Shown here: piece by piece, positions 28,565 to 60,091 of the stretch
Numbering within the stretch: the stretch's first letter is position 1
Layout: the number at the start of each line of letters is the position of its first letter
Origin: Pyrinomonas methylaliphatogenes
GTDB lineage: Bacteria > Acidobacteriota > Blastocatellia > Pyrinomonadales > Pyrinomonadaceae
Reading direction: 5' to 3'
Length of the DNA: 64,000 bases
Assembly (NCBI RefSeq): GCF_000820845.2
Contig: NZ_CBXV010000003.1
Span: forward strand, 186,001 to 250,000
Made by a program: the position numbers and the translations under genes
The notes under the pieces: model-generated
Seen by the model: only the letters and a program-made list of their open reading frames with translations
Databases searched by the model: none
Told to the model about the DNA's origin: nothing

Positions 28565-28986
28565 CCATCATCACAACGAGACCATCGCCCCTCTCGACCA
28601 GGCGCATAAAGCCTCATCTCGCGAACAACTGTCAGTCCACAAGCGACCTCTTTTTGAAGGGCGCACGCCGAATCGCCGTTTCAATCAAAGGTGGAGCCGA
28701 AGCTTTGCGAATGGGATCCTATGCGCGGGTATGCGATGGCTCGATTTGCTCTTAGACACAACTAAAGATAGGCTCATGCTCGAGGTATGCTGCCCCGAAC
28801 ATGAGCCGGTCAAGTTCTTCTTGTGTCACGAGTCGAGCTGCCGCTCGATCTCCAAAGCCACGAGGCTCGTCCGACTTCCAGCTTGGAACGTCCGCTCTTT
28901 TCTAAGGCAAGCCCCGTTCCATGCCGCGAGATCAGCTTTTTCCGGCTATTTTCGCAGGGTCGTGCTCCCCAAGGCGGCTCATTTTT

Positions 28987-29020
28987 CCGAAAAAATGTAA
29001 AAGCTCATCCATTTTTTCGG
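28987..29020. repeat. Perfect 11-bp inverted repeat
   Basis: CCGAAAAAATG (28987-28997) and CATTTTTTCGG (29010-29020) are exact reverse complements around 12 bases. No gene adjoins it, so it may be a terminator relic or a protein-binding site. Confidence 0.6.
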
Positions 29021-29059
29021 ATTTCCACCCAAATCGCTTTAGCCTCAGATTAAAGCGAT

Positions 29060-29443
29060 TTATGCGAAACCACGCGCGCGGAGCGTTTGTCAAACCAATT
29101 CCCTTCAACCTCTCTGCTAACGCGATCTCCCTACGCGCGCGGAGCGTTTTTCAAGACGCTCTTCGCTACATCGGGCGGCAGCGCGATCTCCCTACGCGCG
29201 CGGAGCGTTTGCGCAAACCGCTCAACTCACCGCACCGCTCCATATGCGTGCGGAATGCTCGCCCGGACAAGCGCCGCCACGGGCGCAAACTCCCACCGCT
29301 CCATATGCGTGCGGAATGCTCTCATCGCGGTGGATGAAGGCGACTTCTATTCGCCACCGCTCCATATGCGTGCGGAATGTTCGCTTGTTACGAAACAACG
29401 AAGCGCGCCGTTGACCACCGCTCCATATGCGTGCGGAATGTTC
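29060..29443. CRISPR. Degenerate CRISPR-like array, 61-bp period, no cas genes
   Basis: Seven repeat units are seen. Units 1-3 (29060-29088, 29121-29149, 29182-29210) are 29 bp with 32-bp unrelated spacers and share ACGCGCGCGGAGCGTTT; units 2 and 3 match over all 29 bases and unit 1 only in its right half. Units 4-7 (29233-29260, 29294-29321, 29355-29382, 29416-29443) are 28 bp with 33-bp unrelated spacers; their core is CTCCATATGCGTGCGGAATG, and only a C/T change near the end separates units 4-5 from 6-7. The two groups align over their right ~23 bases (CTCC.TA.GCG.GCGGA). The gap between units 3 and 4 is about 11 bases short. A 61-base period is not a multiple of three, which rules out a protein repeat. 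No cas gene lies in the window, and the within-array divergence suggests a decayed or non-CRISPR element. Confidence 0.55.
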
Positions 29444-29538
29444 ACTCTTCGAGCACAAGACATCAGACTGGCGATGTGCCGGTCTAAGGGTGCGGCAGCA
29501 CTTTGACCGTCTCCGCGCTTCAGATTTAGATAAGGCGG

Positions 29539-29626
29539 GTCGCGCACGGAGCGCGGTAAAAGATCCTCGCTCGCGCGAAGCGCCCGCTGGTATGTCCCGC
29601 CGAAAGTCGCGCGCGGAGCGCGGTAA
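29539..29626. repeat. Direct repeat pair, 67 bp apart
   Basis: GTCGCGCACGGAGCGCGGTAA at 29539 recurs at 29606 with one change (A to G). The shared CGCGCGCGGAGCG core resembles units 1-3 of the nearby array, so it may be an outlying relic of the same family. Confidence 0.65.
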
Positions 29627-29751
29627 TCGCGCCCCATTTTTGTTTCTCTCATCAACAAACGACCGATTTCCCCTTCCACTCTCGAGCGGTCGGAATTAAG
29701 ATCGGGCCGTTCGTCGTACAAACTTCTCGTGAGGAGCAAAGAGACTCGAAG

Positions 29752-47856: not shown

Positions 47857-48336
47857 CAACATCCCCTCCATCGCTAAGATCTTTAAGGCGAGCTCGGGAT
47901 AGGGGGCCCGCAAGTCCACCTTCGACAGTCAATTGTACGGGAGCCCCCTTGGCGGAGAGTTTATTCGAATCGCTTCGCGATGTCGATCCATCTCTGTCGA
48001 GCTTCTCCTTCGAGGATCCGCGCCGACACTCAGCTTATCCATCCGCATCTCGCGTCGCTGAAGCCAACTCGCTCAAAGCGTCACGAGCGCGCCTAGGTAT
48101 TGACATCGACTGATCCTGTAGTAAGATTGGGGCCGACGAACGCCAACGAACGAGGACGAACTCGGAAATGGGCGATGGGTCAACCCGCTCACGCATCACG
48201 CGCGTAGACACTGAAGGAGCGGTTGGCTAGTTCTTTGAGCGATCACGAGGCCGCGCTTTCGCCAAGTCTTCTGTTAAAGCCGCCGGCAGAGTGAGAACTG
48301 CACAAAAGCTCTCACCTGAATCGAAGGGAGGAAGTC
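47857..48336. other. Intergenic region between divergent radical SAM genes
   Basis: No gene is supported. A strong plus-strand promoter at 48100-48127 leaves a leader of about 205 bases before the ATG at 48337. The leader is fairly structured-looking but matched no riboswitch I know. Confidence 0.5.
48100..48127 (+). promoter_or_regulatory. Sigma-70-like promoter of radical SAM gene
   Basis: TTGACA (48100-48105), a 16-base spacer and TAAGAT (48122-48127). The resulting transcript would start about 48134 and carry a ~200-base 5' leader. Confidence 0.6.
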
Positions 48337-49659
48337 ATGGAAGAGCTCAACGCGCAGTTAGAATCAGGGAAGCCGCAAGAAGCAGCGCTATCTAATCCAC
48401 CATTCCGAATGGATGTCCGCCTGCATCAGATACTCACAAGGCCGAGAAGTAAACCCACTTTGCCACAGGCCGAACCTCAAACTTTACCGGAGCCGATCTT
48501 CCCCCAACATCCTGAGCTTCTCGGAGATGATCCTTCGGAAGAAGAGGCCCACAAGGCCGCCGTTGCCGGCCAGCGACACTGGTCGGCCCCGCTGGTGCTG
48601 CGCGCTATGCGCGGCTGGTTGTTCCCTTACATAAAATCGCTCGTGCTGCCAGGCGATTTTCATCCGATCATCGCCTATCTTTTCACGGAATGGAGATGCA
48701 ATTTGGATTGTCACTACTGTTGGGCTTTCGATAACCGGGTCAAAGGCATGACCGAAGATATAGCCAAACGCTCGATCGACTGGTTACACGATGGCACCGT
48801 GTGTCGCGTGCTCGCGCTGATGGGCGGAGAGCCGCTTTTGCGCCCTCAGTTCATCCACAAGGTCATCTATTACGCGGCCAAAAAGGGATTCTGGGTCTAT
48901 CTGCCGACGAACGGGCGCCTGATGAAGCCAGATGTGATAGACCGAATCGCAGATGCAGGTGTCGCGGTCGTAAACCTAGCCGTAGATTCCGTGGACAAAA
49001 AGCCCAGCCTGCCCAAGGCGCTCAACCCCATACGGCCATACTTCGATTACTTGATCAGAAAACAATACAAGTATGGCTACTCGGTCTTCCTTAACATCAA
49101 CATCTGCCGGAATAATCTGGAAGACGTAAAGCAACTGACCGAGATCGCGCACGAGAACGGTATCGCCACAGACTACCACATAAATGAGTCGCCGATGCTC
49201 CGCGAAGACCACTTCAAGCACTACGAAGAGAACGAAACTTTCATCCGCCCGGAGGATTGGCCCAAAGTCGACGAAGTCATAGACTGGCTCTGCGAGAAGA
49301 ATCGCCAAGGGTATAAGATGACGAACTCCGTGCAGCGTCTCCAAGAGATGAAGGCGTTCATGCGCGGCAAACTTCAGGATTGGAATTGTCGGGCCGGTCA
49401 GAATTCCATCATAATCCGCGTGGACGGCACGCTAGCGCCTTGCTTCCCGATGTACTCGGCCACCTATGACTGGGGCACAATCGAAAACCCCAAGTTTGAA
49501 GTTGAGCAGCTAAACCAGATGAAGAGAGAGTGTCAACCACATTGCTTCTCCACCCTTAACCATACCCTAGCCTATTGTTACAAAGCATCGCGGGTCATTA
49601 AATGGCTCTTCAAACAAGCGGCGCGCGGATTCCAAGGCACGACCGGCAGCTTCGACTGA
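48337..49659 (+). CDS. Radical SAM protein with SPASM-like C-terminus
   Basis: A 440-residue radical SAM enzyme. GGGAGGAAG precedes the ATG. An acidic, Pro-rich N-terminal region (~1-85) leads to the cluster motif CNLDCHYC (~131) within FTEWRCNLDCHYCWAFDNRV. LALMGGEPLLRPQF is the GGE motif that binds SAM. The C-terminus has clustered cysteines (DWNCRAGQ, LAPCFPMYSATYDWGTIENP, CQPHCFST, YCYK), a SPASM/twitch-like auxiliary cluster region. Such proteins often modify peptides or small metabolites. It pairs divergently with another radical SAM gene and precedes an SRPBCC gene on the other strand. Confidence 0.88.
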   Translation: MEELNAQLESGKPQEAALSNPPFRMDVRLHQILTRPRSKPTLPQAEPQTLPEPIFPQHPELLGDDPSEEEAHKAAVAGQRHWSAPLVLRAMRGWLFPYIKSLVLPGDFHPIIAYLFTEWRCNLDCHYCWAFDNRVKGMTEDIAKRSIDWLHDGTVCRVLALMGGEPLLRPQFIHKVIYYAAKKGFWVYLPTNGRLMKPDVIDRIADAGVAVVNLAVDSVDKKPSLPKALNPIRPYFDYLIRKQYKYGYSVFLNINICRNNLEDVKQLTEIAHENGIATDYHINESPMLREDHFKHYEENETFIRPEDWPKVDEVIDWLCEKNRQGYKMTNSVQRLQEMKAFMRGKLQDWNCRAGQNSIIIRVDGTLAPCFPMYSATYDWGTIENPKFEVEQLNQMKRECQPHCFSTLNHTLAYCYKASRVIKWLFKQAARGFQGTTGSFD

Positions 49660-58473: not shown

Positions 58474-59925
58474 CTACTTCTCGTCGCCCTCGATCAGCGC
58501 CACGTAACGCCGCGCGAGACCCAGTTCGCGCAGCTTGTGTTGAAGCGATTGGCGGTGCATCCCCAAGATGGCGGCAGCGCGCGTGACGTTGCCGCCCGTC
58601 AACTCCAAACATCGCGTGATGTAGGTGCGCTCGAATTCGCGCCGATCGGCGCGAAAATTCATCGTAAAGGGCACGCGCAAAGCCTCTCGTCTCTCTTCAT
58701 CTTCTGCGCGCGATGTTTCATGAGATTCGAGCGCAAGGTCGCGGACAGCGATCTCTTTCCCCTCGGCCATGATCACCGCCCGTTCAATGACGTTACGCAA
58801 CTCGCGCACATTGCCGGGCCAAGCGTACTCGAGCAAACGACGCAACGCCGAAGCGGAGATGGTTCGCGCCGGCAGTCCATACTTGTCCGCCGCAGCTTGC
58901 GCGAAAGCTGTGGCGAGAAGCGGGATATCCTCACGCCGCTCGCGCAAAGGCGGAACCTCGATTGTCACCACACGCAGGCGGAAGAAGAGATCGGCGCGAA
59001 AGTTGCCAGCCTCTATCTCGCGTTCCAATTGCCGATGTGTCGCGCTCACGATACGCACATCGACCGGGATCGGTTCCGCCCCGCCCAGACGTTCGATGGC
59101 GCGCTCCTCGATCGCGCGAAGCAACTTGGCTTGAACGTTCGCGCTCATATCTCCGATCTCATCGAGGAAGAGCGTGCCGCCATCGGCCAACTCGAACTTC
59201 CCTTGCCGGCGCATCGATGCGCCGGTGAACGCTCCCTTCTCATGCCCGAACAGTTCGGATTCGATCAACTCCGAAGGCAAAGCGGCGCAATTGATGGCGA
59301 CGAAACGCCCACGACGACGGCTTCGTTCATGAATGGCGCGCGCGACCAACTCCTTACCGGTTCCCGATTCTCCTCGAATCAAAACCGTGGCATCAGTTTC
59401 GGCCACCTTCTCGATCACCGCGCGCACCCGCTCGATGGCCGGAGATTGGCCCAACAGTTTCGCCGCCGCGCTCTCCAATTCTAACGATCGCCGCAAAGCT
59501 TCGTTCTCGCGTTTCAACCGCACCGTCTCGAGCGCGTTGCGCACGACGAGTCGAAGCTCATCGATCTCGAACGGTTTGGCGAGATAATCGTGCGCTCCGG
59601 ACTTGATCGCCTCGACGGCCATGCGCTCGGAACCATACGCGGTGATCATGATGAAGAGCGGCGCATCACCCCTTTCGCCGAACTCCCGCAGAAGATCCAA
59701 GCCGCTCGCGCCCGGCAAATTGATGTCGAGCAGGACCACATCAGGGCGTTTGCGCTCGATCTCGCTGCGCGCGCGTTCAGCATCCTCCGCCTCCGCGATC
59801 TCACAATCGAGCGAAGCGAGGGCGCGCCGCATGCCGTATCGCGCTGCCTCTTCGTCATCTACGATCAACAATCGCAATCTGTCCGATTTCGCTTCGACCA
59901 CACGTTCCTCCAAAGGAGCGTTCAC
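58474..59925 (-). CDS. Sigma-54-dependent response regulator (NtrC family)
   Basis: A 483-residue regulator. The receiver domain (~17-130) has [16 protein letters not shown] with the phospho-acceptor Asp, and MITAYGS and YLAKPF. The AAA+ domain has Walker A GESGTGKE, the sigma-54 contact loop [11 protein letters not shown] and Walker [12 protein letters not shown]. The C-terminus (~440-475) is a Fis-type helix-turn-helix ([20 protein letters not shown]). It belongs with the histidine kinase gene just upstream (60142-62181). Target promoters would be of the -24/-12 type. Confidence 0.93.
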
Positions 59926-59995
59926 GTTTGTTGAGCGATTATGCTCAATTGGCGCGCGAAATGTGAAGTCTGCGAATGCGATTCGCAGACGCGCT

Positions 59996-60091
59996 CGAGG
60001 TTCACGCTATTAACACGCGAGACCGAGCAGCGGCATGGTACATGGAAAAAGCTGCTGCCCACCCGAGGTTCACGCTATTAACACGCGAGAC
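59996..60091. repeat. 28-bp direct repeat pair, 68 bp apart
   Basis: CGAGGTTCACGCTATTAACA followed by CGCGAGAC occurs at 59996-60023 and 60064-60091 with no mismatch over 28 bases. It lies between the kinase and regulator genes of a two-component pair, in their shared leader. Confidence 0.85.

What the first reader, a model, noticed from the sequence alone, without database searches (positions are those of the whole stretch)
29060..29443. Degenerate CRISPR-like array with exact 61-bp period and two repeat subfamilies
Seven units sit at 61-bp steps (one step is 11 bases short). Units 1-3 are 29+32 bp and units 4-7 are 28+33 bp, close to type I-E and I-F geometry. Spacers are mutually unrelated. 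The right half of the 29-mer (TCCC.....GCGCGG.G) recalls type I-E repeats on one strand. The repeats have diverged into two homologous groups, which is unusual in a live array. No cas genes are present and 61 is not a multiple of three, so this is not a coding repeat. It could be a dying orphan array, a fusion of two arrays, or a new CRISPR-mimicking element.
Basis: partly seen in the sequence, partly recalled or inferred. Interest (0 to 1): 0.72.

Follow-up and report, generated by a model that had tools for sequence, protein, structure and literature searches.

The report
Orphan CRISPR array targeting its host
A short leftover bacterial immune memory (a CRISPR array) whose own Cas machinery is gone carries, as its most recent entry, a perfect copy of a piece of the bacterium's own pyruvate dehydrogenase gene, the mark of a defence system that turned on, or recorded, its own host.

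Summary
Window 29060-29443 has seven repeat units: six spacers, five of exactly 32 nt and one of 21 nt, and two related 29-nt repeat groups. The genome matches Pyrinomonas methylaliphatogenes K22. Read on the minus strand the array has type I-E geometry (29+32). The spacer between units 6 and 7 (29383-29414) is a 32/32 match to the genome's own pyruvate dehydrogenase E1-alpha gene on another contig. Its protospacer is preceded by AAG, the commonest type I-E PAM, on the expected side. That spacer is the newest if the leader lies at 29444 onwards. Type I-E cas1 and cas7 are absent from this genome. A congener has them with a 29+32 array; K22's own systems are type I-B and I-G. Both repeat groups lack the perfect I-E stem and have 5'-handle bases that in E. 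coli abolish interference. The repeats occur as arrays nowhere else searched. Best reading: a cas-less type I-E relic, probably two sister arrays joined by a deletion (the 21-nt spacer sits at the group boundary), frozen with a self-targeting spacer. Orphan arrays and self-targeting spacers are both known; this is a clean, unusually divergent example, not a new kind of element.

The parts
29415..29443 (-). Repeat unit 7 (group 2), leader-proximal: GAACATTCCGCACGCATATGGAGCGGTGG
29383..29414 (-). Spacer S1 (newest if polarity is right): TCAACGGCGCGCTTCGTTGTTTCGTAACAAGC, 32/32 to own pdhA-like gene with AAG PAM
29354..29382 (-). Repeat unit 6 (group 2)
29322..29353 (-). Spacer S2, 32 nt, no protospacer found
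29293..29321 (-). Repeat unit 5 (group 2)
29261..29292 (-). Spacer S3, 32 nt, no protospacer found
29232..29260 (-). Repeat unit 4 (group 2), differs from unit 5 only at the last base
29211..29231 (-). Spacer S4, truncated to 21 nt, at the junction of the two repeat groups
29182..29210 (-). Repeat unit 3 (group 1): AAACGCTCCGCGCGCGTAGGGAGATCGCG
29150..29181 (-). Spacer S5, 32 nt, no protospacer found
29121..29149 (-). Repeat unit 2 (group 1)
29089..29120 (-). Spacer S6 (oldest), 32 nt, no protospacer found
29060..29088 (-). Repeat unit 1, terminal, half-degenerate (18/29 to unit 2), as expected at the leader-distal end
29444..29751 (-). Presumed leader side; 57% GC next to the array (27% in the congener's type I-E leader), so the leader is lost or unrecognisable

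Best explanation
This is a remnant type I-E-type CRISPR array transcribed, if at all, from the minus strand. Type I-E Cas1-Cas2 once added 32-nt spacers next to copies of the leader-proximal repeat. The last recorded event took a fragment of the host's own pyruvate dehydrogenase E1-alpha gene next to an AAG PAM. The cognate cas operon is now gone, so the array is inert and the self-spacer is tolerated. Two sister arrays with related repeats were probably joined by a deletion, which cut the junction spacer to 21 nt. Shown: geometry, repeat relatedness, the self-match with PAM, absence of type I-E Cas1 and Cas7 from this genome, presence of a type I-E system in the congener. Inferred: polarity, fusion, order of events (autoimmunity selecting for cas loss, or acquisition going on after interference had failed), and present inertness.
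For: 29+32 geometry in five of six intervals, as in 200 of 214 spacers of type I-E arrays in related genomes G008, G014, G036 and G034 and both spacers read in the congener. Group 1 repeat is 17/29 identical to the G008 type I-E repeat, p about 0.0008, on the matching strand; summed over seven type I-E repeats p = 0.0006 (group 1) and 0.007 (group 2). S1 matches own contig C8:678077-678111 over 35 nt, E 7e-11, about 4e-12 such matches expected by chance; the match is repeat G + 32-nt spacer + 2 nt, preceded by AA, giving AAG. [quoted passage not shown] Units 4 and 5 differ only at that base, the base at which variant repeats of G014 mostly differ too. No type I-E Cas1 above cut-off and no Cas7e/CasC in the 99.5% complete genome; congener G001 has Cas1e, Cas6e, Cas5e, Cas7e and GTATTCCCCACACACGTGGGGATGAACCG repeats. 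The group 2 handle ends UGG and group 1 ends GCG; E. coli interference needs C at -2 and -3 (PMC3764190).
Against: The repeats lack the perfect 7-bp I-E stem and the GAACCG end shared by most related I-E repeats; group 2 similarity to I-E repeats is weak, and the reverse orientation scores as well or better for one reference, G027. No AT-rich leader is recognisable. No protospacer was found for the other five spacers. One self-match with one PAM is a single event; AA by chance is about 4%. Four near-identical group 2 repeats mean the divergent repeat was still being copied, so the system may have been a living variant. Cas3, CasA, Cas5e and Cas6e were not searched genome-wide.
Confidence: 0.82

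Rival explanations
1. Array of a type IV-A-like or other effector that borrows type I-E style adaptation; it targets the host gene for silencing, not cleavage.
For: Type IV-A arrays resemble type I-E ones and IV-A effectors do not destroy DNA (own knowledge), so a self-spacer would be tolerable. S1 matches perfectly and keeps its PAM.
Against: No cas effector operon in the window (PADLOC scan of 45 reading frames). The two cas1 loci of this genome are type I-G and I-B with unrelated 36- and 30-nt repeats. csf genes were not searched genome-wide.
Confidence: 0.06
2. The orphan array is transcribed and its S1 RNA, complementary to pdhA mRNA, acts as an antisense or crRNA-like regulator of pyruvate dehydrogenase.
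For: S1 read on the minus strand is the reverse complement of the pdhA coding strand over 32 nt, and both are intact. Effects of type I-E spacers on host genes have been claimed elsewhere (PMC2923632, PMC12188710; titles and abstracts only).
Against: No type I-E effector, no promoter-like site in the leader region, no stable hairpin for processing, no conservation in any relative.
Confidence: 0.05
3. Not CRISPR: a tandem 61-bp repeat or repetitive intergenic element that happens to hold a pdhA fragment.
For: Repeats are atypical. A 13-nt piece of the group 1 repeat recurs twice at 29541 and 29608 outside the register.
Against: Interspersed segments are unrelated and of fixed 32-nt length. The pdhA match coincides with the spacer limits and has an AAG PAM. 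Units do not occur elsewhere in the genome and appear only as single chance-level matches in 84,980 species genomes.
Confidence: 0.04

Closest known systems
Type I-E CRISPR arrays (E. coli; congener G001; same-family genomes G008 and G014)
   Same: 29-nt repeat, 32-nt spacer, 61-nt period, AAG PAM with G as last repeat base, degenerate last repeat
   Different: No cas operon; two repeat groups; imperfect stem; handle not GAACCG; no AT-rich leader; one 21-nt spacer
Self-targeting CRISPR spacers with inactive systems (Stern et al. 2010, as reviewed in PMC6990116)
   Same: Perfect self-match in a chromosomal gene; cas genes absent and repeats altered, two of the listed ways of tolerating it
   Different: Here the PAM is intact and the whole cognate system appears absent while two other subtypes (I-B, I-G) are kept
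Lactobacillus acidophilus NCFM cas-less array with six self-targeting spacers (PMC6990116)
   Same: cas cassette gone, array kept
   Different: One self-spacer here; divergent repeats; different genus and array
Pelobacter carbinolicus hisS-targeting type I-E spacer (PMC2923632, PMC6990116)
   Same: Type I-E spacer against a housekeeping gene of its host
   Different: There the system is present and the spacer is old; here the spacer lies at the presumed new end and the system is gone

Membership tests
CRISPR array | Near-identical repeats separated by unrelated spacers of constant length | tested here: met
   one spacer of 21 nt is the exception
CRISPR array | At least one spacer traceable to a protospacer with a PAM | tested here: met
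   S1 to own pdhA, 32/32, AAG
Type I-E array | 29-nt repeat + 32-nt spacer | tested here: met
Type I-E array | Repeat related to type I-E repeats | tested here: inconclusive
   Group 1 significant, group 2 weak
Type I-E array | Perfect ~7-bp repeat hairpin for Cas6e | tested here: not met
   both groups fold differently and more weakly, so this is at most a relic or variant, not a working type I-E array
Type I-E array | AAG/AWG PAM on the 5' side of the protospacer | tested here: met
   one protospacer only
[quoted passage not shown]
   TIGR03638 only 37 bits against cut-off 215.6, TIGR01869 no match; CasA, Cas3, Cas5e, Cas6e not searched genome-wide
Type I-E array | Transcribed and processed to ~61-nt crRNA | not testable with these tools
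   No RNA data
Type IV-A array | csf genes/DinG in the genome | not tested

The most novel reading that the evidence does not exclude
The array was a living variant type I-E system with non-canonical repeats whose adaptation went on after (or without) interference, recording the host's own genes; or its pdhA spacer RNA is kept as an antisense regulator of pyruvate dehydrogenase.
Probability: 0.1. Interest if true: 0.55.

Novelty: new member of a known kind. Interest (0 to 1): 0.33.

Why it matters
It is a clear natural record in Acidobacteriota of a perfect, PAM-flanked self-targeting spacer left behind in a genome that has lost the matching CRISPR subtype while keeping two others, with a congener that still has the subtype. 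That makes autoimmunity as a cause of CRISPR loss testable by comparing strains of one genus. The divergent but internally uniform repeats also bear on how far type I-E repeats can drift while still being copied.

Tried and rejected
Phage and plasmid sources for the spacers: only chance-level hits (E about 5) in phage and plasmid collections and no exact seed matches in viral contigs. Other self-matches: best partial hits (19/21, 24/32) lack AAG and look like chance. Other copies of the repeats: none in the genome, none convincing in 162 genomes of the class, only ten single 18-mer hits in GTDB genomes (about 7 expected by my estimate), none in viral contigs. Canonical I-E repeats elsewhere in K22: none with up to 3 mismatches. 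Rfam: nothing relevant. cas gene remnants beside the array: none (tblastn of I-E locus frames against the window; Pfam of nearby frames). Allelic comparison with the congener: the region does not align at DNA level.

Full report
Identity. That paper reports 15 CRISPR repeats; whether this array is one of them was not checked.

Observation. Seven units start at 29060, 29121, 29182, 29232, 29293, 29354 and 29415. The region has 64 pairs of identical 14-mers at lag 61 and no Markov resample had any. Units 2 and 3 are identical over 29 nt, unit 1 keeps the right half, units 4-7 are 27-29/29 alike. The two groups are homologous: 18/29, shuffle p about 0.00025. On the minus strand the first 23 nt are AAACGCTCCGCGCGCGTAGGGAG and GARCATTCCGCACGCATATGGAG, differing at six places, five of them transitions (taking the R as A).

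Source of a spacer. A BLAST of the array against its own genome and relatives returned one outside hit: 35 nt, 100%, own contig C8, and the same gene in the congener. The gene is a pyruvate dehydrogenase E1-alpha homologue (TIGR03181, 273 bits, below that model's equivalog cut-off of 411), followed by an E1-beta gene. The congener's gene is about 90% identical overall with several identical runs longer than 35 nt, so its match reflects gene conservation. In minus-strand reading the protospacer context is GCG-AAG-TCAACGGCGCGCTTCGTTGTTTCGTAACAAGC-GATG: an AAG PAM whose G equals the last repeat base. AAG is the most common type I-E PAM and its G is built into the repeat during acquisition (PMC8482600; PMC3764190).

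Polarity. Unit 1 (29060) is the half-degenerate repeat, the usual state of the leader-distal end (established knowledge). The G-to-A change at the third repeat base is shared by units 6 and 7 only, as expected if new repeats copy the leader-proximal one. Both put the leader at 29444 onwards and make the pdhA spacer the newest. This is inference; no AT-rich leader is seen (57% GC in the adjacent 100 bp against 27% in the congener).

Machinery. Two cas1 loci exist in this genome: contig C5 (Cas4g/Cas1g, type I-G, 36-nt repeats) and C9 (type I-B, 30-nt repeats). Type I-E Cas1 is absent (best match 37 bits against a 215.6 cut-off) and Cas7e is absent. The congener G001 has Cas1e, Cas6e, Cas5e and Cas7e and a 29+32 array. 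Canonical type I-E repeats are absent from K22. The window's 45 long reading frames show no cas effector or adaptation genes by PADLOC, only regulator-like matches to Csa3/CasR/CARF models.

Function of the repeats. Related type I-E repeats form a 7-bp stem of -10.7 to -12.8 kcal/mol (E. coli -15.2); the two K22 repeats do not (-5.1, and -8.1 in another register). In E. coli, interference needs C at handle positions -2 and -3 (PMC3764190); K22 has UGG (group 2) and GCG (group 1) as the last three bases. By that standard the crRNAs would fail even with Cascade present, though a co-evolved Cascade could differ. Because four group 2 repeats are nearly identical, divergence came before copying, so acquisition may have outlasted interference. 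This is a second way to explain the tolerated self-spacer besides autoimmunity followed by cas loss; the data do not separate the two.

Two groups. The only short spacer (21 nt) lies exactly between the groups. An 11-bp deletion joining two sister arrays explains both facts; gradual drift would not put the truncation at that boundary. This is inference.

Uniqueness. The combined 23-nt repeat core occurs in no other of 162 class genomes except scattered single 2-mismatch hits, comparable in number to the reversed-pattern control, and in no other GTDB species genome; an 18-nt core gives ten single hits. The flanks do not align with the congener at DNA level, so there is no allelic site to compare.

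Verdict. A cas-less, probably fused, type I-E relic with a PAM-proper self-targeting spacer. Each element is known (PMC6990116); the combination is a good example, not a new kind.

Noticed in passing
29539-29559 and 29606-29626: Two copies of GTCGCGCRCGGAGCGCGGTAA 67 bp apart on the leader side share up to 13 nt (CGCGCGCGGAGCG) with the group 1 repeats but are out of register; perhaps older broken repeats or a local palindromic element.
   Followed up: partly
28771-28807: Strong terminator-like stem-loop (15 pairs) on the minus strand, about 250 bp beyond the leader-distal end of the array.
   Followed up: no
28986-29021: Perfect 12-bp inverted repeat TCCGAAAAAATG/CATTTTTTCGGA just beyond the leader-distal end of the array.
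   Followed up: no
58477-60006: Sigma-54-type regulator-like protein matching the PADLOC RtcR/PspF CARF-AAA-HTH profiles, E 2e-117 over the C-terminal AAA/HTH part.
   Followed up: no
48295-49656: Protein with a weak match to viperin (pVip) profiles, probably an ordinary radical SAM enzyme.
   Followed up: no
L057 (contig C5 104-123 kb) and L058 (contig C9 45-56 kb): K22 carries a type I-G locus with at least 49 repeats and a type I-B locus that runs to the contig end.
   Followed up: partly
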